Assembly: GCF_018613155.1 (NCBI RefSeq)
Contig: NZ_JAGGQU010000052.1
Coordinates: forward strand, 1 to 62,632
Direction of reading: 5' to 3'
Source: Bacillus sp. ISL-55
GTDB lineage: Bacteria; Bacillota; Bacilli; Bacillales; Cytobacillaceae
Length of the DNA stretch: 62,632 bases
The translations under genes were made by a program, and so were the position numbers. Of the stretch, positions 3,351 through 53,579 are shown piece by piece. Position 1 is the first letter of the stretch, and every line of letters begins with the position of its first letter. The notes under the pieces are model-generated. The model had not been told where the DNA came from and made no database searches. It saw only the letters and a list, made by a program, of their open reading frames with translations.

Positions 3351-3714
3351 GGTAAAAGTAGAAGCACTGCATTGCCTCAAACTCGACTGAAAAAGAAAAA
3401 GGGTAAAAGCAGAAAGCTTGCATTGCCTCAAACTCGACTGAAAAAAGAAAAAGGGTAAAAGCAGAAGGCTTGCATTGCCCCAAACTCGTCTGAAAAAAGA
3501 AAAAGGGTAAAAGCAGAAGCGCTGCATTGCCCCGAAATCGCTTGAAAAAGGAAAAAGGGTAAAAACAGAAAGCTTGCATTGCCCCAAACTCGTCTGGAAA
3601 AAGAAAAAGGGTAAAAGCAGAAGCACTGCATTACCCCAAACTCGTCTGGAAAAAGAAAAAGGGTAAAAGCAGGAGGCTTGCATTGCCCCGAAATCGCCTG
3701 AAAAAGGAAAAAGG
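3351..3714. repeat. 52-bp tandem array, seven units, sequence type A
   Basis: Seven units begin with GGTAAAAGCAGAAG-like sequence at 3351, 3402, 3454, 3506, 3558, 3610 and 3662. The spacing is 51 bp once and then exactly 52 bp. Each unit ends in an A-rich AAAAAGAAAAAG stretch. A central GCAGAAGCGCTGC-type patch varies between units in a correlated way. The array lies between the DUF326 gene and dapF. Its sequence is unrelated to the three TGTCA/TGACA arrays elsewhere in the window, but the period is the same. The reverse strand has no stops in any frame, which produces spurious Phe-rich reading frames. Confidence 0.95.
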
Positions 3715-10458: not shown

Positions 10459-10488
10459 AAAAAAGAGCAGAAATTCTGCTCTTTTTTA
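10459..10488. terminator. Bidirectional terminator
   Basis: AAAAGAGCAGAA/TTCTGCTCTTTT lies between convergent genes. Confidence 0.85.
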
Positions 10489-10797
10489 ATTGGCATCCTC
10501 AACCGTTTCATCCTCAGCAGGCAAGTTTTCCTCACAATAGTTCTTTGCTTGTGCCACTTCATCATCCTCAAGTTCAAAATCGAGAACCTTTTCCGTTTCC
10601 TGTTCAATGAAGTAGCTCTGCAGAATCCGTCTCTCATCGCCGTTTACGAGGAAAAGAACCTTCAAAAGCAGACCTTTTTCAGTATAGAGCTCGTCCTCCT
10701 CGTCAACCTCAATATTTAAAAAGTATTCATATCTGTTCCCTGTAAGAAGTCCGAATGGATCTTCAAGGAGTTCGACAGTATGTCCGGTAATATTCAT
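10486..10797 (-). CDS. Small acidic conserved protein (DUF6509-like)
   Basis: A 103-residue soluble acidic protein. The opening NITGHTVELLEDPFGLLTG and the following beta-rich region resemble a small family conserved in Bacillus that I recall as DUF6509; this assignment is from memory. Its function is unknown. The C-terminal third is a run of Asp and Glu. It has no operon partner. Upstream of it lies a gene-free region that leads into the 52-bp array at 11.1 kb. Confidence 0.7.
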   Translation of the reverse strand: MNITGHTVELLEDPFGLLTGNRYEYFLNIEVDEEDELYTEKGLLLKVLFLVNGDERRILQSYFIEQETEKVLDFELEDDEVAQAKNYCEENLPAEDETVEDAN

Positions 10798-11108: not shown

Positions 11109-11836
11109 TGCTGGAAAGAATCGATTATTATTGTGAAAGGTTTCAGGTGGTAGACCCCTAAGCTGTCAAGAAAACATGGTTATTGTGACAGGTTTCAGGT
11201 GTCAGAGCACAAAGCTGTCAAGAATCCGCCGTTATTATGACAGGTTTCAGGTGGCAGAGTCCAAAGCTGTCAAGAAAACGTGATTATTGTGACAGGTTTC
11301 AGGCTGAAGAGCCCAAAGCTGTCAAGAAAACGTGATTATTGTGACAGGTTTCAGGCTGAAGAGCCCAAAGCTGTCAAGAAAACTTGATTATTGTGAAAGG
11401 TTTAAGGTGACAGAGCCCAAAGCTGTCAAGAAAACGTGATTATTATGACAGGTTTTAGGTGTTAGAGCTCAAAGCTGTCAAGAAAACGTGATTATTATGA
11501 CAGGTTTCAGGTGTTAGAGCTCAAAGCTGTCAAGAAAACGTGATTATTGTGACAGGTTTCAGGTTGTGGAGCCCAAAGCTGTCAAGAAAACATGATTATT
11601 GTGACAGGTTTCAGGTGGTAGAGCCCAAAGCTGTCAAGAAAACGTGATTATTATGACGGGTTTCAGGTGTTAGAGCCCAAAGCTGTCAAGAAAACGTGAT
11701 TATTATGACAGGTTTCAGGTGTTAGAGGTCAAAGCTGTCAAGAATCCGCCGTTATTGTGACAGGTTTCAAGCTGAAGAGCTCAAAGCTGTCAAAAATCCG
11801 CTATTAATAAGACACCTTCCGGAAATGTGACGCTCC
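11109..11836. repeat. 52-bp phased inverted-motif array, type B (14 units)
   Basis: AGCTGTCAAG recurs at 11161, 11213, 11265, 11317, 11369, 11421, 11473, 11525, 11577, 11629, 11681, 11733 and 11785, always exactly 52 bp apart, with a degenerate copy at 11109. Each unit contains TGTCA, 17 bases, then TGACA (centre to centre 22 bp), then GGTTTCAGG. Variation is concentrated in the loop between the half-sites and in positions 38-48 of the unit. It lies between two minus-strand genes and has no coding potential. Confidence 0.97.
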
Positions 11837-11857: not shown

Positions 11858-12478
11858 TCAAAGAAACAGCTTCAGTGCCTGATAGCCAAAAAACAGAGCA
11901 AAGCCAATTAATGAAAGTCCGGATATAAGAGAAATGAAAGTCAGTAACCTTGTTGTAAGAAGCTTTCGGAAGCTGCTGGAAATAGCGGCCATAATGATAT
12001 CCCAGAGAACAAGCCCCAGTATGATACCTAAGCTGTATATGACAAGTTCTCCGGTGCTGGACGAGGAAGCAGTCTTGGCAAGCACTGATCCGTAAATTCC
12101 CAGCCAAAATAAAATGGTAAGCGGGTTGGAAATGGACATGATAAACCCGGATAAAAAAGACTTGAAAGTGGAATTCTCACTTCGATTATCCATGACGATT
12201 TTCCCGGAGTTCATGATGGTTTCTATTCCTGTATACATCAACACAAAGAATCCAAACAGCCAGAGAAAAGATTGCATGAACGGGGTCTCAAGAAAATTAA
12301 CCACTCCAAGATAAACAGTCAGCATGTAGATAATATCTGCCGTGAGAGCGCCTAGACCAAGAAGCCACGCCTGGAAAAAGCCGCTCTTGATTCCTTTATC
12401 CATCTGCGCGGCATTTACGGGCCCAATCGGGGCGGCGAGTGATAATCCAAGAATAATATAGCCTAAGAAGACATTCAC
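11858..12478 (-). CDS. LysE-family amino acid exporter
   Basis: A 206-residue integral membrane protein with about six hydrophobic segments. The family motif near the N-terminus, LAAPIGPVNAAQMDKGIKSGF, is typical of LysE/RhtB exporters of amino acids. I choose GTG 12478, because the apparent upstream TTG start lies inside the GGAGG ribosome binding site. A close paralogue is encoded at 13538-14170 on the other strand, with ydjO and a tRNA gene between them. The substrate is unknown. Confidence 0.9.
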   Translation of the reverse strand: MNVFLGYIILGLSLAAPIGPVNAAQMDKGIKSGFFQAWLLGLGALTADIIYMLTVYLGVVNFLETPFMQSFLWLFGFFVLMYTGIETIMNSGKIVMDNRSENSTFKSFLSGFIMSISNPLTILFWLGIYGSVLAKTASSSSTGELVIYSLGIILGLVLWDIIMAAISSSFRKLLTTRLLTFISLISGLSLIGFALFFGYQALKLFL

Positions 12479-14239: not shown

Positions 14240-14307
14240 AAATCTTTATTTTTGATTAAAATTGATTGTTTTTGAAAGAAAATGATTGATATTTGAAATC
14301 GATTACA
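14240..14307 (+). promoter_or_regulatory. cre site and putative FruR repeats upstream of fru operon
   Basis: TTGAAATCGATTACA at 14293-14307 matches the CcpA consensus WTGNAANCGNWNNCW at every position, indicating carbon catabolite repression. Just upstream, TGATTG-type direct repeats separated by A/T-rich spacers (14260-14292) are plausible FruR operators. The operator assignment is inference. Confidence 0.65.
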
Positions 14308-22223: not shown

Positions 22224-22503
22224 ATATGAATGAGCGATGACGAAGAGTAGTAACTGAAACGGGTACTCAAGAGAGCTGATGGTTGGTGAGAATCAGTGTA
22301 ACTGTTGCAGCGAATGGACTTCCGAGCTTCCAAACCGAACCCTTCAGGCAGTAGGCTTTGGCGAAAGGCCTTATCGTTACAAAAGGCAGGCATTAAGCAT
22401 TCAGTGCTCGATGCTGTTAAGTGAGCTGTTTTACAGCTAATTAAGGTGGCACCACGGGTCTCTCGTCCTTATTGTATTCAATAAGGATGGGGGCCCTTTT
22501 TGT
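22224..22503 (+). promoter_or_regulatory. T-box riboswitch 1 (tryptophan)
   Basis: A canonical T-box leader. It has an extended stem I with GA-rich internal loops, the specifier TGG at 22315-22317 within GCGAATGGACT, the T-box sequence AAGGTGGCACCACGGGT at 22443-22459, and a terminator (22464-22503) ending in T5. Uncharged tRNA-Trp should bind and favour the antiterminator, switching on the trp operon. Confidence 0.92.
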
Positions 22504-22534
22504 TTATACTGAAAAACCCCATAATTTTATTATG

Positions 22535-22830
22535 TAAACTCGATGAGCAAGAAGAGTAAGCAGGATTTTTCTGTTACAGAGAGCCGGGAATGGTGTGAAC
22601 CGGTACAGAAATACTTGTCGAATGGCCTTGTGAGAGGCAGCCTGAAGTAATAGTAGGGCTGCCCGGATTCCTCCGTTAAAAGGATAGGGTATATCGAAAG
22701 CTTTTTTTGGTTTTCCTGTACCTGAAGAGAGGGAGTCTCTAGGCTCCAATATGAGGTGGCACCGCGGTCCAATCGTAATCGTCCTCTATACAGCACAATC
22801 TTTGTGCATGTATAGGGGACTTTTTTATTT
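22535..22830 (+). promoter_or_regulatory. T-box riboswitch 2 (tryptophan)
   Basis: A second complete T-box directly in series. The specifier TGG is at 22623-22625 in TCGAATGGCC, the T-box GAGGTGGCACCGCGGTCC at about 22753-22770, and a terminator with stem GTCCTCTATAC/GTATAGGGGAC followed by T7 at 22780-22826. Tandem Trp T-boxes require two tRNA-binding events for read-through and are known from trp operons of other Bacillus species. Confidence 0.92.
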
Positions 22831-22847: not shown

Positions 22848-24245
22848 ATGAAGGTTGAATCACCAAATATCTTTATTGAAGAGATTGAAGGAGATACATT
22901 AACGCCTATATCCATCTATCAAATGATTTCCGGAAAGAAAAAATTCCTTCTGGAAAGTTCTCATAAACATAATGATTCCGGTCGTTTTTCTTTCATTGGC
23001 TGTGACCCCGTTTATGAGCTATTGAATGAAAAGGGAGAGACTTATCTGGCAAGGAAAGGTATTAAGGAGCGAATACAGGGTTCTTTTTCTGAGGCGCTGA
23101 AGGAGTTGCTTCCAAAATTAAATACTGAAATTGATATTCCTTTCATAGGAGGCGGTGTAGGTTTTGTAAGCTATGATTTCATTCGCGATTTTGAGGAAAT
23201 TGGCCCGCTAAAAGAGGACCCTCTTGATATGCGTGAAGCGCATTTGATGTTCTTCAATGAAGTCATTGTATTTGACCATCTTAAACAAAAAATCAACCTG
23301 ATTGGCATTCCGTTTCCAGGATTCAGCAATGATGATCTTTTTAAGAAAATCAAGAAACGGAAGAAAGAACTTGATTCGCCAGTCAAAAAGCAGCCAGTCA
23401 TTCGATTTTCACTTTCTGATTTTAAATCATCGCAAAACAGGGAGGAGTTTGAGAAATCGGTCAGAGTTGCAAAGAGCTTGATTGAAGAGGGAGAAATCTT
23501 TCAGGTTGTACTGTCAAGAAGGCTTTCCGGTGATGCAAAAGGAGATCCATTTTCGTTTTATCGAAAGCTTCGAGTCGATAATCCTTCACCTTACATGTAC
23601 TTTATAGATTTTGAGGAATATGTGGTTGCCGGCACATCCCCTGAAAGTCTCGTGAAATATCGTGATGGAACAATGATTACCAACCCAATTGCTGGCACCA
23701 GACCAAGGGGTAAAACAGCTGATGAAGATCTAAAACTGGAAGCGGAATTAATCCAGGATGAAAAGGAATTGGCCGAACATAAGATGCTCGTCGATCTGTC
23801 AAGGAATGATTTAGGGAGGATAAGTGAGGTTGGGAGTGTGAAAATTGATAAATTCCTGGCTGTTGAGAGATATCAGTTTGTCATGCATCTTGTATCCGAA
23901 GTAAGCGGGAGGCTGCTGCAAGATGCTCACCCAATCGATGGTCTGGCGGCATGTCTGCCTGCAGGAACAGTATCAGGAGCTCCAAAAATTCGCGCGATGC
24001 AAATCATCAACGAGCTTGAAGCTGAAAAAAGAGGGGTTTATTCAGGTGCAGTCGGTTATTTCTCTGCTTGTGGAAGCATGGATTTTGCCCTCGCGATCAG
24101 AACATTGGTTGTCAAGGATGGCAAAGGATATCTTCAGGCGGGTGCCGGTATTGTATATGATTCTGATCCTGCAAAAGAGTTCGATGAAACCAACCATAAA
24201 TTAAAAGCATTGATGGAGGCAGCCAATGATCCTACTGATCGATAA
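22848..24245 (+). CDS. trpE: Anthranilate synthase component I
   Basis: 465 residues; with TrpG it converts chorismate and glutamine to anthranilate. The N-terminal LLESS motif at about 35-39 is the tryptophan feedback site. The chorismate-binding half carries GTSPESLV, TNPIAGTRPRG and GAPKIRAM. The start follows GAAGGAGGATTTAT, immediately after T-box 2. The end overlaps trpG by 20 bases, coupling synthesis of the two subunits. Confidence 0.97.
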   Translation: MKVESPNIFIEEIEGDTLTPISIYQMISGKKKFLLESSHKHNDSGRFSFIGCDPVYELLNEKGETYLARKGIKERIQGSFSEALKELLPKLNTEIDIPFIGGGVGFVSYDFIRDFEEIGPLKEDPLDMREAHLMFFNEVIVFDHLKQKINLIGIPFPGFSNDDLFKKIKKRKKELDSPVKKQPVIRFSLSDFKSSQNREEFEKSVRVAKSLIEEGEIFQVVLSRRLSGDAKGDPFSFYRKLRVDNPSPYMYFIDFEEYVVAGTSPESLVKYRDGTMITNPIAGTRPRGKTADEDLKLEAELIQDEKELAEHKMLVDLSRNDLGRISEVGSVKIDKFLAVERYQFVMHLVSEVSGRLLQDAHPIDGLAACLPAGTVSGAPKIRAMQIINELEAEKRGVYSGAVGYFSACGSMDFALAIRTLVVKDGKGYLQAGAGIVYDSDPAKEFDETNHKLKALMEAANDPTDR

Positions 24246-32757: not shown

Positions 32758-35613
32758 GTGAAAAAGCCAGTGTCGGGAAACAGGGTTATATGGCCGGGTT
32801 TTCATGGACCTAACCAGGGATATGTCGAAGAATTATATGAAATGTTCCTACAAGATCCGGATTCCGTTGATGCAGATATCAGGGAATATTTTGAAAAAAA
32901 TTCTAATCTACAATCTTCATCTTCATATGAAAGTAATCAAGTAATTCCTGCAGTAAAGGCAGCAGGATCTCCGGCAAAAATTGCAGCTGCATTAAGATAT
33001 GCTGATTATATCCGTTCTTATGGCCACTTATCTGCCAATATTTATCCATTACAGTTTGGAAGCAAAGATCCGCAACTTGAAGATTATGAGAAATGGGGAT
33101 TGACTGAAGCTGACTTGATGGATATGCCAGTGGAGATCGTATGCCCTAGTGCTCCTTCTTCCATTAGAAATGGCAAAGAGGCCTTTCAATTTCTTCAAAA
33201 GGTTTACTCCGATACGATTGCGTACGAATTTGAACATGTAAATGAAATGGCTGAAAAAGAGTGGCTTAGGCAGAAGGTTGAGTCTGGCGCACTAATTCCT
33301 AAAATTAATAAAGATAGAAAAACCAGTTTATACGAACGCCTTACAGAGGTCGAGAATTTCGAAAAGTATTTGCACCGGACCTTTGTAGGACAAAAGAGGT
33401 TTTCAATCGAAGGACTGGATTCAATGGTTCCGCTTCTTGATGAGGTCATTAGTGGAGCAGTCAATAATGGTGTTGAAACAATCAATATTGGCATGGCCCA
33501 TAGAGGAAGGCTTAATGTCCTTGCCCATGTTTTAGGTAAACCATATGAAATGATTTTTGCTGAATTCCAGCATGCCCCAAATAAAGAGCTTGTTCCATCA
33601 GAAGGTTCGATTGGAATTAATTTCGGCTGGACTGGCGATGTGAAATATCACCTTGGACTTGACCGGAAAATCAAGTCGGATACTACTGCCAATGCGAGAC
33701 TGACATTGGCTAATAACCCAAGCCACCTTGAGTTTGCAGGTGCAGTGGTTGAAGGTTTTACTCGTGCTGCGCAGGATGACAGGGATGAACCGGGTTATGC
33801 GAAATATGATCCTGTGAAAGCAATGGCTATCCTGATCCATGGTGATGCCGCATTCCCGGGGCAGGGTATTGTGGCTGAAACTCTGAACCTAAGCCGTTTG
33901 CACGGATATAAAACTGGCGGAACGATTCATGTTATTGCCAATAACACGATTGGATTCACAACCGAATCAATGGATTCTCGATCCACACGTTATGCCAGTG
34001 ACCTGGCGAAGGGATATGAAATACCGATCGTCCATGTCAATGCAGATGATCCGGAGGCATGCTTGATGGCAGCCAGGCTGGCATTTGAGTACAGAAGGAA
34101 TTTCGGAAAAGATTTTTTGATTGACCTGATTGGGTATCGACGATTTGGCCATAACGAAATGGATGAGCCAATGACAACAAATCCTGAAATGTATGTGCTC
34201 GTCCACAAACATCCGACAGTGAAGAAAATCTATGGTGATAAACTTATAGACCAAGGATCTATGTCAGAAGAGACAAGAACCGAAATTGAGCAGAAAGTAT
34301 CGGGCAGGCTGACAGAAGCATACGAAAAAGTCCCGAAAAAAGAGAAGGAAGTAACGAACGAACCAGATATCCCGGATGTAGTGGAAATGGGAATACCACA
34401 GATAGAAACTGGCGTGCCAATCGACGTACTAAGAAAAATAAATAGTGATCTCCTTAATTGGCCTGAAGGTTTCAATGTCTTCAATAAATTAGAGAAAATC
34501 CTTCAAAGAAGAAAGGATGCATTTTCTGACAACGGTAAAATAGATTGGGGTCTGGCAGAAACTTTGGCGTTTGCTTCAATAATAAAAGATGGAACACCAG
34601 TCAGACTTACTGGACAGGATTCTGAGAGAGGAACCTTTGCCCAGAGGAACCTTGTCTTGCATGACAGCGAAACTGGCGAGCAATTTTCACCGCTCCATGT
34701 TTTGCCCGGCGCAAGAGCATCCTTCTCCATTCATAACAGTCCGCTATCTGAAGCAGCTGTAGTGGGCTTTGAATATGGGTATAACGTATTCGCCCCAGAA
34801 ACTTTAGTCCTTTGGGAAGCACAATATGGTGATTTTTCTAATGCTGCCCAGGTACTGTTCGACCAGTTTGTGGCGGCTGGCAGAGCGAAGTGGGGACAAA
34901 AATCAGGTCTAGTCATGCTTCTGCCTCACGGATATGAAGGACAGGGACCAGAGCATTCCAGCGGAAGAGTTGAAAGGTTTTTAACACTAGCAGCTGAAAA
35001 TAACTGGACTGTTGCCAACCTTTCTTCTGCGGCTCAATATTTCCATATTCTACGCAGACAGGCTGCGATTTTAAAGCAGGAAGCTGTTCGTCCGCTGGTT
35101 TTGATGACACCTAAAAGTCTTTTGAGGAACCCTACGGTTGCTGCGGATCCGCGACAATTGGCAGAAGGTAGTTTCAAGCCGATCATCGAACAGCCAGGAC
35201 TTGGCAGCCAGCCAGAGAAAGTGGAGCGGGTGGTGTTGTGCACTGGAAAAGTGAGCATAGATATCGCTGAAAAGATCCAGCCGGAAGAGCATGGATGGCT
35301 GCATGTATTGAGAATCGAGGAAATCTATCCTTTCCCGCTTGAATTATTAAAAGAAAAGTTAGAACGTTATCCGAACTTAAAAGAAATTGTCTGGGTTCAG
35401 GAAGAACCTAAGAATATGGGAGCATGGACATTTGTTGAACCTAGAATCAATGAAGCAGCACCGAATGGACTGGAAGCTTCCTATATTGGTAGAAGAAGAC
35501 GTTCAAGTCCGGCAGAGGGAGATCCGAACATCCATAAGTTGGAGCAAGCAAGAATTGTAAATGATGCACTGACAAGGACAAATGGAGGAGGAAATGAAAA
35601 TGGCAGAGATTAA
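32758..35613 (+). CDS. odhA: 2-oxoglutarate dehydrogenase E1
   Basis: 951 residues, thiamine-diphosphate-dependent E1 of the TCA-cycle complex that decarboxylates 2-oxoglutarate. It has the N-terminal [18 protein letters not shown] subunit-binding segment, [11 protein letters not shown], the TPP motif [17 protein letters not shown] and GHNEMDEP. The start is GTG 32758, behind GCAAGGGGG. It overlaps odhB by 14 bases. Its length agrees with the Bacillus homologues. The E3 subunit is not here; in this group it is shared with pyruvate dehydrogenase. Confidence 0.98.
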
Positions 35614-36892
35614 AGTTCCTGAATTAGCCGAATCAATCACCGAAGGAACGATTGCCCAATGGCTGAAAAAAAAGGGTGATCAAGTCGAGAAAGGTGAATA
35701 TGTCGTTGAACTGGAGACCGATAAAGTTAATGTTGAAATTATCTCTGACTTTGATGGAGTATTAACAGAGCTCCTCGCTGAAGAAGGAGATACAGTGAAG
35801 GTTGGGGAAGCAATCGCCATTGTTGGTGAACAGGGCAGCGCAGCAAACGATCAGCCTACTGCAGAAGCAGGCAGGGTGAAGGAATCCCCAGATGAATCTG
35901 CTAAGGATGAAAATGGCTCGGTCGAAGGACAAAACACCGACAAAAAACCTACTGTTGACCAGGCTAGTAATGAGGCAGCCTCGGAACGTATCATTGCTTC
36001 ACCTGCAGCAAGAAAACTGGCAAGGGAAAAGGGCATTGACTTGGGCAAGGTAGTTTCCCAGGATCCGCTAGGCAGAGTAAGGAAACAGGATGTCGAGTCA
36101 TATTCTCCAGAGCAAAAAAATAACCAAAAGCCAGCTGTGGAAAAAATTGAAGCTGCGAAGGCTAGCCCTGCAGGCAAATCAGATGATGATAGCCGGGTTG
36201 AGCGAATCAAGATGTCACGGAGACGCCAGACTATTGCCAACAGGCTGGTTGAGGTTCAGCAGACAGCGGCAATGCTCACGACCTTCAATGAAGTCGATAT
36301 GACAGCGGTTATGGAGCTAAGAAAGAGATGGAAGGATCGTTTCTATGAAGAGAATGATGTTCGTTTAGGATTCATGTCATTTTTCACGAAAGCTGTGGTA
36401 GCCGCCTTGAAGAAGACTCCTTACTTGAACGCCGAAATCCAGGGAGACGAAATTGTCCTCAAAAAGTTCTATGACATCGGAGTCGCTGTTGCTGCCGATG
36501 AAGGACTTGTTGTTCCAGTCATCAGGGACGCGGACAGGAAAAATTTTGCCGAGATTGAAAATGATATTAACGAGCTAGCTGAAAAGGCTCGTACAAACAA
36601 ACTTTCCTTGAAGGACCTTCAGGGAGGAAGCTTTACTATTACCAATGGAGGCGTATTCGGGTCATTGCTATCTACACCTATTATCAATGGTCCGCAAGTA
36701 GGAATCCTTGGAATGCACACAATCCAGTTGCGCCCCGTTGCCATCGATAAAGAAAGAATGGAAAACAGGCCAATGATGTACATCGCATTATCCTATGACC
36801 ACAGGATTGTTGATGGCAAAGAAGCCGTCACTTTCTTAAAACGAATTAAGGAACTGATGGAAGACCCAGAATCACTGCTGTTACAAGGATAA
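35600..36892 (+). CDS. odhB: Dihydrolipoyl succinyltransferase E2
   Basis: 430 residues, E2 core of the 2-oxoglutarate dehydrogenase complex. The lipoyl domain (1-about 80) has Lys42 in [10 protein letters not shown]. An acidic, Ala/Pro-poor linker and the E3-binding domain (about 133-170, [16 protein letters not shown]) follow, then the catalytic domain ending in [15 protein letters not shown] 35600 with GGAGGAAATGAAA gives the family N-terminus [12 protein letters not shown]. The 14-base overlap with odhA couples translation. Confidence 0.98.
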
Positions 36893-36898
36893 CTTTTA

Positions 36899-36935
36899 GA
36901 AGCACTGCCGCGAATTTTTGTGGCAGTGCTTTTTG
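36899..36935 (+). terminator. Terminator of odhAB
   Basis: AGCACTGCC/GGCAGTGCT followed by T5. Confidence 0.9.
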
Positions 36936-37015
36936 GGGCTTGAGAACTCTATGAAAAAAGGAAGAGCAGTTGGAAAGCGATAGAATTTTGGTAGATATTA
37001 AAATGTAGAAGTCAA

Positions 37016-37495
37016 AGCTGTCAAGAATGTATAGTTATTATGACAGGTTTCCGTGTTGAGAGCCAAAACTGTCAAGAAAATGTGATTATTGTGACAGCTT
37101 TCCGGGTTGAAAGCCCAAAGCTGTCAAGAAAACGCCGTTATTGTGACAGGTTTCAAGGTTGAAAGCCCAAAGCTGTCAAGAAAACGCCGTTATTGTGACA
37201 GGTTTCAGGGTGTAGAGCCCAAAGCTGTCAAGAAAACGTGATTATTATGACAGGTTTACGGGTGTAGAGCCCAAAGCTGTCAAGAAAACGCCGTTATTGT
37301 GACAGGTTTCCGGGTTGAGAGCTCAAAGCTGTCAAGAAAACTTGATTATTATGACAGGTTTACGGGTTGAGAGCCCAAAGCTGTCAAGAAAACGTGATTA
37401 TTGTGACAGGTTTCAGGGTGTAGAGCCCTAAAATGTCAAGAAAACGTGATTATTGTGACAGGTTTCCGGGTGTGTAGCTCAAAGCTGTCAAGGAC
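37016..37495. repeat. 52-bp phased inverted-motif array, type B (10 units)
   Basis: AGCTGTCAAG-type motifs at 37016, 37067, 37119, 37171, 37223, 37275, 37327, 37379, 37431 and 37483. The first step is 51 bp and all others 52 bp. Each unit carries TGTCA, then TGACA 22 bp on, as in the array at 11.1 kb, but the distal part reads GGTTTCCGGGTTGAGAGC or close variants. The array fills the space between the converging odhB and NERD genes. Confidence 0.97.
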
Positions 37496-37524: not shown

Positions 37525-38433
37525 TTACTCAAAATAGGTATCCTTGGTCGTTCCCGATGCTCGATAGTTCTTTTTTAACACCCTCAAAAACGTCCTCCTA
37601 CTAACCTTCCCATTACACCACTCATAAACGGTTTGCGTAGTGATTTTCTGTTCAGGAAACAGCACTTTGATTTCCTCTATGTGCCGCACGATTGCCTTTT
37701 CTATTCTTTCATGGGTACCGCACTTGCCGCAAACAAGGTCATAGTCAGCGATTTCGGAATTCAAAGACCCGCATTCCGAGCAATTCATTCCTTTTTCCAG
37801 TTGATCGTATTGGTAGTCAGGCAGTGTGGCGAATGGATTTTTAACCTGGTGCAGTGAAAGCAATGATTGGGCGAGTTTCTTGTGGCTTTCGTCCAATTTT
37901 GAGGGGGTACTGTTTAACTCTTTTAGGAATCGATTAATTTGTGTTGGTAGAATGATCGGTTGGTCCATTGGGGCATGGTATAGGGTGAACTCAGGATTGT
38001 TGAAAACAACGGAGGAACGGACTAGGTGATTCATCTTAAGGGTTTGCAGCAGCTGGCGGAAAAGAGTCTCACTCCGTGTCAACTGAATGATGGGGTTTTT
38101 GTATTCTCGACTGCTGCGGACGGAAAATAATTTATCTCCTTCGAGATAGTAATCGCCTTCGTGATATTTGACATCGATAAGATAGACTCCATCCTGGGAA
38201 ATGATTACTTTATCCAGCTGGAAATATGAGTTATTCACTTTAAGCAGGAGATCGTCGATGATAAATCTTTCTTCCGCGAGGGTTTCGGTCATCCGGTCGA
38301 ATAACACTTCTCCAGTAAAACCCTTTTCCATAGTCCAAAGCTGAAATTTTTTCTGGGATGACAACTCCATCCGCCTGTTCAAATGCCGTAATGCGATTAA
38401 TTCAATTGGTTCAGTGCGTGATTTTAGTAGCAT
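37525..38433 (-). CDS. NERD-domain protein with zinc ribbon
   Basis: 302 residues. The N-terminal part (about 40-150) fits the nuclease-related domain: GFTGEVLFDRMTE, then DKVIISQDGVYLIDVKYHEGDYY, where an Asp followed by V-K is the usual nuclease-fold core. A four-cysteine knuckle (CSECGS...CGKCGT, about 217-238) is followed by a basic helical tail with a helix-turn-helix-like YEWCNGKVSRRTFLRVL. NERD proteins are suspected nucleic-acid enzymes; function unproven. Its 3' end abuts the second repeat array. Confidence 0.82.
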   Translation of the reverse strand: MLLKSRTEPIELIALRHLNRRMELSSQKKFQLWTMEKGFTGEVLFDRMTETLAEERFIIDDLLLKVNNSYFQLDKVIISQDGVYLIDVKYHEGDYYLEGDKLFSVRSSREYKNPIIQLTRSETLFRQLLQTLKMNHLVRSSVVFNNPEFTLYHAPMDQPIILPTQINRFLKELNSTPSKLDESHKKLAQSLLSLHQVKNPFATLPDYQYDQLEKGMNCSECGSLNSEIADYDLVCGKCGTHERIEKAIVRHIEEIKVLFPEQKITTQTVYEWCNGKVSRRTFLRVLKKNYRASGTTKDTYFE

Positions 38434-49999: not shown

Positions 50000-50058
50000 A
50001 AAAAAATTCCACCTTTCGTTTTGTGACTATTGAATGAAGGTGAGTATTTTATCCATTT

Positions 50059-50092
50059 AAAAAAACCTCCCAGGTGTCACCCGGAAGGTTCT
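50059..50092 (-). terminator. Attenuator terminator in ABC-F leader
   Basis: On the minus strand AACCTTCCGGGT/ACCTGGGAGGTT is followed by T7, 60 bases before the ABC-F start. Confidence 0.85.
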
Positions 50093-50180
50093 GCAATACA
50101 TTCACAATAGATTTAAACGCCACAAAACAAGCATAGTTGCGCCAAAAGGCAACATGCTTTGATCAGGTTAAAAATCGACT

Positions 50181-50290
50181 GGGAATGGCAAAAAGAGCAG
50201 ACTAATCCTATTTTCGGGCAACACGTTTTTCATATTAGAAAAATCGGGCAGAAAATAAGATTAGTATTTCATCGGCTCTTTACCATTCCC
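50181..50290 (-). promoter_or_regulatory. Long-range stem in ABC-F leader
   Basis: GGGAATGGTAAAGAGC (minus strand, 50290-50275) can pair with GCTCTTTTTGCCATTCCC (50198-50181), and inside it ACTAATC with GATTAGT. The stem encloses the MKY reading frame and sits upstream of the terminator, as expected for ribosome-controlled attenuation. Confidence 0.65.
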
Positions 50291-50302
50291 TTCAGATATC
50301 AT
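50261..50302 (-). CDS. Candidate leader peptide of ABC-F gene
   Basis: A 13-codon frame (MISEGNGKEPMKY) begins at 50302, a few bases from the predicted transcription start. Within it ATG 50272 gives the tripeptide MKY with AAAGAG upstream. An alternative frame, MVKSR, overlaps by ATGA. Which one is translated is not decidable from sequence. Confidence 0.4.
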   Translation of the reverse strand: MISEGNGKEPMKY

Positions 50303-50310
50303 TAATTTAA

Positions 50311-51658: not shown

Positions 51659-51979
51659 ATGAAAAAAGTAGTATATGGGCTAATGATTAATTCAGGTGAC
51701 GCTGACGAAATGCTGTGGGACCATGGTGTGTGGGAAACAGAAGAAGCAGCGAATGAATATATTGAAAATGAAATGTCAACGATAAGCGGCGTTTGGGCGG
51801 GAGAGCTAAAGGTCAATGACTCCATTCCAGAAGCAGCAGGTTTTGATGGAGAAGAAATGATAGAATGCCCACTATGTGGGATCGAGTACAATCCAGAGGA
51901 CGTAAACACTGTTGATTACGATGAAGCTGTGTGCATCAACTGTGAGCCCGGATATAAGGAAAATATGAATATAGCATAA
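51659..51979 (+). CDS. Hypothetical zinc-knuckle protein
   Basis: 106 residues, acidic (MKKVVYGLMINSGDADEMLWDHG...). Two CxxC pairs, CPLC near 77 and CINC near 97, probably bind zinc. Not recognised. ATG 51659 has AAAAGGAGTGGC; longer starts upstream lack a site. Terminator at 51988-52016. Confidence 0.7.
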   Translation: MKKVVYGLMINSGDADEMLWDHGVWETEEAANEYIENEMSTISGVWAGELKVNDSIPEAAGFDGEEMIECPLCGIEYNPEDVNTVDYDEAVCINCEPGYKENMNIA

Positions 51980-51987
51980 GACGGATT

Positions 51988-52016
51988 GCCATGGACTAGA
52001 CGTCCATGGCTTTTTG
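51988..52016 (+). terminator. Terminator
   Basis: GCCATGGAC/GTCCATGGC followed by T5. Confidence 0.9.
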
Positions 52017-52138: not shown

Positions 52139-52188
52139 GACTTAGTAATTATTAGGATATTTAGACAGGGTTTCTAAAAAAGGGTCAA

Positions 52189-52830
52189 TGCTGTCAAGAA
52201 AGTCTCGGAATTGTAACAGCTTTTCAGGGAAAGGGGTCAAAGCTGTCAAGAAAATCCCGTTATTGTGACAGCTTTTCAGGGAAAGGAGACAAAGCTGTCA
52301 AGAAAATCTCGTAATTGTGCCAGCTTTTCAGGGAAAGGAGGCAAAGCTGGCAAGAAAAGCTCGTTATTGTGACAGCTTTTCAGAGAAAGGAGGCAAAGCT
52401 GTCAAGAAAAGCTCGTTATTGTGACAGCTTTTCAGAGAAAGGAGGAAAAGCTGTCAAGAAAGTCCCGTTATTGTGACAGCTTTTCAGAGAAAGGAGGAAA
52501 AGCTGTCAAGAAAGTCCCGTTATTGTGACAGCTTTTCAGAAAAAGAGGTCAAAGCTGTCAAGAAAGTCCCGTTATTGTGACAGCTTTCAGGGAAAGGAGG
52601 CAAAGCTGTCAAGAAAAGCTCGTTATTGTGACAGCTTTTCAGAGAAAGGAGGAAAAGCTGTCAAGAAAGTCCCGTTATTGTGACAGCTTTTCAGAAAAAG
52701 AGGTCAAAGCTGTCAAGAAAGTCCCGTTATTGTGACAGCTTTTCAGAAAAAGAGGTCAAAGCTGTCAAGAAAGTCCCGTTATTGTGACAGCTTTTCAAAA
52801 AAAGACGAACAAGCTGCCAAAAGTGCTGGT
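52189..52830. repeat. 52-bp phased inverted-motif array, type B (13 units)
   Basis: GCTGTCAAG motifs, counted from the base before, at 52189, 52241, 52293, 52345, 52397, 52449, 52501, 52553, 52604, 52656, 52708, 52760 and 52812. All steps are 52 bp except one of 51. Here the arms are extended: AAAGCTGTCA and TGACAGCTTT form perfect 10-bp inverted repeats in most units. The distal part reads TTCAGAGAAAGGAGG. It fills the gap between two converging genes. Confidence 0.97.
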
Positions 52831-52853: not shown

Positions 52854-53579
52854 CTAATAAGTGACTGTATCAAAGATTCCAACGATTATTAAAGTGTATC
52901 CTGCTAATTTTTGCACCACTGAACCCAGTTTGCGACTTTTTTTCATCAATGACCCGTTCAGGCCGATGTAGGAAATGATTGCAGCAAAGATAATCAGCGG
53001 GATGGAAGTGCCAATGGCAAAGACTGTAGGCAGAACTGCTCCGTATGATGTATTCAGGACAATCGGCATAAGTGTAAAGAAGAATAAGGAAAACATTGTA
53101 GGACAGAATGCGATTGAAAAGCTTACCCCCATTAAAAAAGATCCTGTTTTTCCATTGCCTGTCCATTGTGGCAAAACTGAAGTGAAGCGATTGATCCAAT
53201 TAAATGCGAAGACTCCAATAAGTGACAGGCCGATCAAAATGAAAAGAGGTCCCATCAGTTTTCGGAACCAGGAAAAGAAGCCCGGCAACATTTGCTGGAA
53301 ACTCTGGCCTGCTAGCCAGACTGCATGGCCTAGCAGTGTAAAGACGAATATTTTCCCCAGGATGAAGAACATAATCTCGATCCACTGGCCTTTCGTTTGC
53401 AGACTTCGGTTGCCATAGTAAGTGATTGCACCGAGATTGCCTGTCAGCTGGCATGGAGCAAGAGCGCCGACAAGACCCAGCAAAAAGCTAGCCAATAATG
53501 GAATTTGTTCAGTCTGGTTCACAAGGGTGAAAAATGGTCCGCTCAGAAAATTACTGATTTCTGTAAACAGTTGATACAT
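52854..53579 (-). CDS. CcdA/DsbD-like membrane protein
   Basis: 241 residues with about six transmembrane helices. ALAPCQLTGN in the first conserved helix and FCPTMFSLFF in the fourth place one Cys each in positions like those of the CcdA/DsbD electron carriers; databases also label such proteins sulfite exporter TauE/SafE-like. Probably transfers reducing equivalents across the membrane. The start follows GGAGGTACTTT (minus strand). pflA lies upstream on the same strand but a terminator separates them. Confidence 0.75.
   Translation of the reverse strand: MYQLFTEISNFLSGPFFTLVNQTEQIPLLASFLLGLVGALAPCQLTGNLGAITYYGNRSLQTKGQWIEIMFFILGKIFVFTLLGHAVWLAGQSFQQMLPGFFSWFRKLMGPLFILIGLSLIGVFAFNWINRFTSVLPQWTGNGKTGSFLMGVSFSIAFCPTMFSLFFFTLMPIVLNTSYGAVLPTVFAIGTSIPLIIFAAIISYIGLNGSLMKKSRKLGSVVQKLAGYTLIIVGIFDTVTY

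What the first reader, a model, noticed from the sequence alone, without database searches (positions are those of the whole stretch)
11109..11836. Array of an inverted TGTCA/TGACA motif phased at exactly 52 bp
Thirteen copies (plus one degenerate) of AGCTGTCAAG lie at strictly 52-bp steps over 0.7 kb, with no indels. Each unit has TGTCA and TGACA half-sites 22 bp apart, then 30 bp to the next. 52 bp is close to five helical turns, so all sites would face the same side of DNA. Length is conserved better than sequence: the loop and distal 10 bases drift while spacing does not. This suggests a docking array for a DNA-binding protein, or a chain of hairpins if transcribed. The same family occurs at 37.0 and 52.2 kb. 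I know of no described system with this unit.
Basis: partly seen in the sequence, partly recalled or inferred. Interest (0 to 1): 0.85.

Follow-up and report, generated by a model that had tools for sequence, protein, structure and literature searches.

The report
Replication-oriented 52-bp bacterial satellite arrays
This bacterium carries very many arrays of a 52-letter DNA repeat of a kind already in the literature but unexplained, and in close relatives they nearly all point the same way relative to DNA copying, a clue to how they arise or work.

Summary
The array is real: 12 exact AGCTGTCAAG copies, one with a single mismatch and one degenerate copy, all steps 52 bp, no indels. It belongs to a published class, the 52-nt tandem repeats of Bacillus, catalogued for species of this genus (Mesobacillus), so the class is not undescribed. 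What I did not find in the papers I could read is its polarity. In complete chromosomes of six congeners, 68 of 71 sites of this family point the same way relative to replication. In an unselected sample of two of them (0.96 Mb, 37 arrays, seven clusters plus five singletons), related arrays share orientation on the leading strand in 44 of 46 pairs (23 of 23 across replichores), and 37 of 37 are purine-rich there. The 20-21-nt repeats of the same stretches show no polarity (16 to 13); one array-rich genome of another family (H. coagulans-like) shows only a weak bias (14 to 6). Most families are palindromic. Sites favour gene 3' ends; one site holds an array in 15 of 16 genomes with a clear orthologue. 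Many unrelated families with one length argue against one sequence-specific docking protein. My best but unproven mechanism is amplification and spread coupled to the lagging-strand template.

The parts
11109..11836 (+). Family F1 52-bp array (the finding): TGACAGSTTT-15-AAAGCTGTCA-17 units
37013..37492 (+). F1 array, 9.2 copies, between convergent genes; the orthologous 3' site holds a 52-bp array in 15 of 16 genomes with a clear orthologue
52179..52804 (+). F1 array, 12.1 copies, between convergent genes
3351..3714 (+). 52-bp array of an unrelated, non-palindromic family (GGTAAAAGCAG...CATTGCCC), same polarity as its relatives in G016 and G019 (compared by eye)
11858..12478 (-). LysE-type translocator gene whose 3' end faces the array (65 bp gap, no intrinsic terminator found by my scan)
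10486..10797 (-). DUF6509 gene on the other side of the array
36902..36929 (+). predicted intrinsic terminator of the 2-oxoacid dehydrogenase E2 gene (35582-36892), before the 37-kb array
37525..38331 (-). NERD-domain gene whose 3' end faces the 37-kb array (33 bp gap)
51988..52010 (+). predicted intrinsic terminator downstream of the ORF 51659-51979, before the 52-kb array
52854..53579 (-). DsbD-like transmembrane gene whose 3' end faces the 52-kb array (50 bp gap)

Best explanation
SHOWN: the array is one of a large set of 52-bp satellite arrays (about one per 26 kb in two sampled congeners) of several unrelated sequence families. They lie between genes, more often at gene 3' ends, and in this genus share one orientation relative to replication, whatever their sequence. 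Most units are palindromic, and in one family the arms change together on both sides. INFERRED: units are amplified and spread by a replication-coupled process acting on the lagging-strand template. Single-stranded unit-length segments are exposed there, many able to fold as hairpins, and are copied or annealed into other sites on the same template strand. Orientation is then fixed by fork direction and not by genes. Insertions survive mainly after genes, where they disturb no promoter. The constant 52 bp (five turns) would be a length set by that machinery or by a protein wrapped on the array. Whether the host gains a function is not shown.
For: Polarity of F1 (matches within 2 kb counted as one site, single matches included): G016 21 of 22 and G019 13 of 13 listed sites, G009 10 of 10 and G018 9 of 10, G011 3 of 3 and G015 12 of 13; GC skew fits the replichores in 20 of 20 G016 stretches and 60 of 60 G016 and G019 stretches. 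Unselected sample of 960,019 bases: 37 arrays, 37 purine-rich on the leading strand (mean 0.625 against 0.517 in 326 array-free gaps, 215 of them above 0.5); related pairs same orientation 44, opposite 2, across replichores 23 to 0; simulation with random orientation 0 of 20,000, with the 79% coding bias p=0.0007. Arrays between two lagging-strand genes are purine-rich on the leading strand too, 3 of 3. Internal control: 20-21-nt arrays in the same stretches 16 same, 13 opposite. Arm co-change in F2: pair 7-19, 37 of 41 distinct units Watson-Crick against 21.7 expected, three pair types. F1 recurs at many sites of a genome.
Against: No enzyme was found. IS200/REP-type Y1 transposase (PF01797) has no match in array-rich G015 and G006. 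In the H. coagulans-like genome G243, family-1 orientation on the leading strand is 14 to 6 and purine-rich in 14 of 22 arrays, so strict polarity is not general to the class. Three F1 sites point the wrong way, and of 16 arrays in stretches chosen around G016 F1 sites two are not purine-rich on the leading strand, one of them the inverted array. The window family at 3351 and its relatives are not palindromic, so hairpins cannot be the whole story. Folding is stronger on the leading-sense strand in only 24 of 39 consensus units, one tie. Polarity could equally be kept by selection. Sites in different species are partly orthologous, so the six genomes are not independent.
Confidence: 0.4

Rival explanations
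1. Functional polar docking arrays: a nucleoid, topology or DNA-translocase protein polymerises or wraps on DNA with a five-turn repeat and reads polarity from the purine-rich strand, so selection keeps arrays pointing with the fork.
For: 52 bp is five helical turns (arithmetic with 10.4-10.5 bp per turn, recalled) and spacing is kept while sequence drifts; the sampled families share polarity and purine bias; the array at the 37-kb site is present in 15 of 16 genomes with a clear orthologue while its loops differ between species.
Against: Seven clusters of unrelated arrays in two genomes, so no single sequence is read; no clear enrichment towards the terminus (11, 11 and 15 arrays in three distance bins), unlike what is recalled for KOPS-like signals; no partner protein found.
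Confidence: 0.27
2. RNA function: arrays are transcribed as chains of hairpins acting as 3' ends, terminators or small RNAs.
For: Palindromic units; 52-nt families detected in B. coagulans RNA-seq (PMC8625621, passages read); at sites A and C some array-free orthologues carry, by eye, canonical terminators that array alleles lack.
Against: 43 of 71 stop-array gaps already hold a terminator before the array (33.3 expected by length-matched controls), so many arrays lie after termination; purine bias follows replication even between lagging-strand genes (3 of 3); palindromes read alike on both strands.
Confidence: 0.15
3. Mobile hairpin elements moved in trans by a single-strand (HUH, IS200/REP-type) transposase that inserts into the lagging-strand template.
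For: Lagging-strand insertion is established for IS608 and ISDra2 (PMC6006769, passages) and would give this polarity; most units can form hairpins.
Against: PF01797 has no match in G015 and G006, both array-rich; I did not identify an isolated unit with clean target borders; constant 52-bp tandem steps are not a trait of those elements (recalled).
Confidence: 0.08
4. Ordinary neutral satellite: chance tandem duplication by slippage and unequal exchange without function or special coupling.
For: Edge units are degenerate; copy number varies between congeners at one site.
Against: Same 52-bp length in unrelated families, near-uniform polarity against a non-polar 20-21-nt control.
Confidence: 0.1

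Closest known systems
52-nt tandem repeats (satellites) of Bacillus, Subirana and Messeguer 2021 (PMC8161180, text and tables read, supplements not) and 2020 J Bacteriol (title from its reference list; text not held)
   Same: Constant 52-nt unit, several unrelated families per genome, non-coding, short conserved signals often with their reverse in the unit, mostly 4-10 copies; B. selenatarsenatis listed with 82 tandem repeats, 59.8% of them 52 nt, shared with B. boroniphilus and B. subterraneus.
   Different: The words orientation, leading strand, terminator and purine do not occur in the 2021 paper. Polarity, gene context and orthologous-site comparison here are additions to what I could read.
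BIME / REP / REPIN elements
   Same: Extragenic palindromic units in clusters with inverted arms (PMC6006769 passages); preference for gene 3' ends is recalled.
   Different: Unit length and architecture differ; those go with a REP transposase (PMC6006769 passages), here PF01797 is not required; strict replication polarity is not, to my recollection, a trait of BIMEs.
IS200/IS605 single-strand transposons
   Same: Insertion into the lagging-strand template, hairpins at the ends (PMC6006769 passages).
   Different: No encoded transposase, exact 52-bp tandem arrays, at least one non-palindromic family.
KOPS / SRS-type polar translocase signals (recalled)
   Same: Leading-strand polarity, G/A-rich strand.
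   Different: Arrays of long units, no common short motif shown, no clear terminus enrichment.
CRISPR arrays
   Same: Regular direct repeats.
   Different: Very many arrays per genome and no unique spacers; the variable part recurs between units.

Membership tests
52-nt tandem repeat class (PMC8161180) | Unit length 51-53 nt kept while sequence differs between families | tested here: met
   Periods 51-53 make 38 of 137 TRF rows of period 10 or more in 960,019 bases, 52 the commonest single period with 32; 1049 of 1083 single steps at 52 for F1
52-nt tandem repeat class (PMC8161180) | Non-coding, at least four repeats, several families per genome | tested here: met
   0 of 37 sampled arrays scored as inside a called gene; several clusters per genome; 12.8 copies here; some sampled arrays have fewer than four copies (for example, L241 8444-8573)
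BIME / REP | Extragenic, at gene 3' ends, avoiding divergent promoters | tested here: met
   Named loci and window: 29 tandem, 13 convergent, 1 divergent of 43 arrays with both neighbours called; unselected sample 19 tandem, 10 convergent, 4 divergent of 33, weaker and not significant against all gaps of 30 bp or more
BIME / REP | Cognate REP-associated Y1 transposase | tested here: not met
   PF01797 has no match in array-rich G006 and G015
IS200/IS605 or derived element | Replication-set orientation | tested here: met
   68 of 71 F1 sites
IS200/IS605 or derived element | Y1 transposase available in the genome | tested here: not met
   no match in G006, G014 and G015; 18 of 21 genomes have one
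KOPS/SRS-like polar signals | Enrichment towards the terminus | tested here: not met
   11, 11, 15 arrays in 316, 348, 296 kb from origin to terminus
KOPS/SRS-like polar signals | Recognition by FtsK/SpoIIIE | not testable with these tools
   needs binding or translocation assays
CRISPR | Unique spacers between repeats | tested here: not met
   Variable positions recur among units of one array
Known structured RNA | Rfam match over the array | tested here: not met
   4 Rfam matches in the window at gathering thresholds, none on an array

The most novel reading that the evidence does not exclude
The 52-bp satellites of Mesobacillus form one chromosome-wide, replication-polar system defined by length, strand composition and mostly palindromy and not by sequence: an unknown machinery that measures 52 bp and acts on one strand at the fork (most likely the lagging-strand template) makes, spreads and renews arrays of unrelated sequence in a single orientation.
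Probability: 0.3. Interest if true: 0.85.

Novelty: new member of a known kind. Interest (0 to 1): 0.6.

Why it matters
The 52-nt satellites are a stated puzzle in the literature: constant length, free sequence, no known function. If they are laid down or kept with strict replication polarity in one genus, the search for a cause narrows to processes that see fork direction, and the question becomes testable by flipping a site or re-sequencing lines. It would also give bacteria a satellite system whose identity is geometry and not sequence.

Tried and rejected
1. 'Arrays replace terminators': suggested by sites A and C, where some array-free orthologues (G014, G016, G009 at A; G014, G016, G011, G020, G013 at C; read by eye) carry canonical terminators and array alleles do not; the general test failed (43 of 71 gaps do hold a terminator).

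2. Y1 transposase as obligatory partner: rejected, no match in G006 and G015.

3. Strict polarity as a property of the whole class: not supported in the H. coagulans-like genome G243 (14 to 6). One search had listed only plus-strand places for G243 and misled me for one step.

4. Orientation set by neighbouring genes: about 25 of 34 by an informal tally, not scripted; weaker than the replication rule.

5. Terminus enrichment: not clear. Stronger folding on one strand: 24 of 39 with one tie, not decisive.

6. Unit-level covariation within F1: not run, because the arms hardly vary; done on F2 instead, where pairs 6-20 and 7-19 pair beyond expectation but 8-18 and those further in mostly do not.

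7. Viral contigs: 0 stretches with the exact F1 pattern. Rfam: nothing on the arrays.

8. Corrections to my own notes: G002 and G012 were counted at the 37-kb site with changed arms; one search shows that the G012 gene is nearer a paralogue (80% against 66%) and the G002 gene is ambiguous, with the E2 neighbour found in neither, so both were dropped. Site counts for G015 and G019 (13 of 14, 14 of 14) were recounted from the listings as 12 of 13 and 13 of 13.

Full report
What is there. The window holds four arrays with a 52-bp period: 3351-3714, 11127-11793, 37013-37492 and 52179-52804. The last three share one unit (family F1); the first is unrelated in sequence. In the array of the finding the 12 exact AGCTGTCAAG copies are all 52 bp apart. 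Written out in full the unit is TGACAGSTTT-15 nt-AAAGCTGTCA-17 nt (read), so 10-nt inverted arms alternate every 25 and 27 bp. The chance expectation in the window is 3.7 matches (up to one mismatch) against 38 found.

Where it comes from. The own genome (G000, 4.52 Mb, 69 contigs) has 227 exact copies of AGCTGTCAAGAA. The longer F1 pattern found 75 stretches among species genomes: M. boroniphilus, M. selenatarsenatis, Bacillus sp. ISL-37, ISL-41 and ISL-45, and records labelled Cytobacillus oceanisediminis DE0166 and Chryseobacterium sp. ISL-80. It found none in viral contigs. The genus is therefore inferred to be Mesobacillus. Of 20 congeners, 16 have at least two exact 12-mers and four (G002, G008, G010, G014) have none; among 40 genomes outside the genus counts are 0 to 3 except 9 in G030. 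A second palindromic family, F2 (TGTCCGA-...-TCGGACA), matches in 21 of 21 genomes of the genus, with 146 matches in G000 and 169 in G002, which lacks the F1 12-mer; but in G008 and G014 it does not exceed the reversed-pattern control (1 and 4 matches, control 1 and 4), so 18 of 20 congeners exceed their control.

Already described class. PMC8161180 (main text and tables read, supplements not) describes tandem repeats of constant 52-nt size and variable sequence in Bacillus, lists B. selenatarsenatis with 82 tandem repeats, 59.8% of them 52 nt, shared with B. boroniphilus and B. subterraneus, and proposes nucleoid proteins or small RNAs without proof. The words orientation, leading strand, terminator and purine do not occur in it. 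PMC8625621 (passages only) reports that B. coagulans 52-nt families appear in RNA-seq; orientation and replication do not occur there. The 2020 J Bacteriol paper is not held, so I cannot say what it contains. Searches in which I looked for print on this: (listings and abstract starts).

Gene context. Sampled arrays are intergenic: 0 of 37 overlapped a called gene. In 43 arrays of the named loci and window with both neighbours called, 29 lie between tandem genes, 13 between convergent and 1 between divergent genes (contig-edge arrays, arrays lacking a called neighbour and one coding repeat left out). In the unselected sample of G016 and G019 the rule is looser: 19 tandem, 10 convergent, 4 divergent of 33, four edge arrays left out; against array-free gaps of 150 bp or more divergent is under-represented (p=0.04) and convergent over-represented (p=0.004), but against all gaps of 30 bp or more neither reaches 0.05 (p=0.49 and 0.07). 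In 43 of 71 stop-array gaps an intrinsic terminator precedes the array, 33.3 being expected from 158 control 3' ends of which 94 have one.

Orthologous sites. Downstream of the orthologues of the three F1-flanking genes: at the 37-kb site 15 of 16 genomes with a clear orthologue (G000 and 15 congeners, 77% identity or more) show a 52-bp array by TRF; in the other, G006, the 119 bases held before the contig end read as array units. Hits in G002 and G012 were dropped: the G012 one is a paralogue and the G002 one ambiguous. At the 11-kb site 9 of 20 show a 52-bp array (one, G005, of another family) and a tenth, G017, ends in a unit at a contig edge; at the 52-kb site 8 of 21 do, G005 and G004 end in unit-like sequence at contig edges, and G003 has unit-like sequence that TRF did not report. 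Some array-free orthologues hold a standard terminator (by eye).

Polarity. In the complete chromosomes G016 and G019 the F1 12-mer is on the plus strand from 0 to 2.46 Mb and on the minus strand from 2.9 Mb on, with one exception array in G016 (60 of 90 G019 matches were listed, all 34 forward ones among them, 30 reverse ones unseen). GC skew of 20 stretches of G016 is positive up to 2.40 Mb and negative from 2.64 Mb, which fits an origin at the record start; all 60 stretches of G016 and G019 agree with these replichores. Counting matches within 2 kb as one site, single matches included: G016 21 of 22, G019 13 of 13 listed, G009 10 of 10, G018 9 of 10, G011 3 of 3, G015 12 of 13 (100 of 108 matches listed), together 68 of 71. 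For G009, G011, G015 and G018 a longer F1 pattern was used and the origin was placed by synteny of the window genes with G016, not measured. Sites are partly orthologous, so these are not 71 independent events.

Sampled families. In 60 stretches of G016 and G019 taken without regard to arrays (960,019 bases) TRF found 37 arrays of about 52 bp, in seven clusters of two or more and five singletons; clustering by single linkage joins some F1 and TGTGCCC-type arrays. With the leading strand on top, 37 of 37 have more than 50% purine (mean 0.625; 326 array-free gaps mean 0.517, 215 above 0.5), base composition A 0.369, G 0.258, C 0.180, T 0.194 against A 0.321, G 0.197, C 0.170, T 0.313. Of 46 related pairs at different sites 44 share orientation; 23 of 23 across replichores do. 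Random orientation reached this in 0 of 20,000 simulations; orientation drawn with the 79% coding bias in 0.07%. The 20-21-nt arrays of the same stretches give 16 same and 13 opposite. In stretches chosen around G016 F1 sites 14 of 16 arrays are purine-rich on the leading strand; the two that are not are the inverted array and one near the terminus. The window fits: GC skew +0.112, all four arrays purine-rich on the plus strand (0.573 to 0.665).

Limits of the polarity. G243, the one genome of 397 in the order with more than two copies of a B. coagulans family motif (14 of 397 have any), shows 14 of 20 motif-bearing arrays in one orientation on the leading strand (by local GC skew) and 14 of 22 arrays purine-rich. 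Strict polarity is thus shown for Mesobacillus only.

Structure. 24 of 39 consensus units have inverted arms reached by at most 1 of 40 dinucleotide-preserving shuffles; mean arm 8.9 against 5.5; the 3351 family and relatives have none beyond shuffles. In F2 the pair at positions 7 and 19 is Watson-Crick in 37 of 41 distinct units against 21.7 expected, with three pair types, slid control 0 of 41; pair 6-20 is 39 of 41 against 32.2; pairs further in mostly do not pair. Few independent changes underlie this.

Mechanism. Sequence-specific docking by one protein is hard to reconcile with many unrelated families. What the families share is length, polarity, purine bias and mostly palindromy. I therefore favour replication-coupled amplification and spread from the lagging-strand template, with a functional polar docking array as the main rival. 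No enzyme or protein was identified, and Y1 transposase is not required.

Verdict.

Noticed in passing
window 3351-3714: A 52-bp array of an unrelated, non-palindromic family; its relatives in G016 and G019 share its polarity by eye.
   Followed up: partly
L134, L135, L136, L137, L143 (NERD-domain paralogue of window 37525-38331): The paralogous gene also has a 52-bp array just downstream, of TTCGGACA/TGTCCGAA type, in 5 of 5 genomes checked, as if the 3' ends of this gene family were favoured sites.
   Followed up: partly
window 22228-22789: Two T-box leaders in a row (Rfam RF00230) ahead of an operon starting at 22848.
   Followed up: no
window 50058-50304 (-): Match just above threshold to Bacillus sRNA ncr1575 (RF02452, 61.2 bits against 60).
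   Followed up: no
L022, L032, L061 (labelled Cytobacillus oceanisediminis DE0166) and L015, L019, L030 (labelled Chryseobacterium sp. ISL-80): F1 arrays in records with names outside Mesobacillus; the L022 array consensus equals that of G020 at the 37-kb site up to the strand shown, so the record names look wrong.
   Followed up: partly
L239, L255, L261 and others in G016 and G019: Non-coding 20-21-nt arrays (26 at periods 19-22) in families such as TCGCTATATAAA and ATCGCCAATAAAA, not polar as a class (16 to 13), though the TCGCTATA pairs listed are uniform.
   Followed up: partly
window 14259-14298; L016 6727-6766; L056 2394-2433: A similar 20-bp two-copy repeat (AAAATGATTGATNTNTGAAAG-like) recurs at several loci.
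   Followed up: no
orthologues of window 11858-12478 (site A): Array alleles keep what looks like the left arm of the terminator seen whole in G009 and G016, as if the array had broken it (by eye).
   Followed up: partly
G016:C1 441173-441444, G018:C1 1188479-1188717, G015:C1 2872825-2873375: The three F1 arrays that point against replication; the G018 and G015 ones may be one orthologous locus by rough synteny.
   Followed up: no
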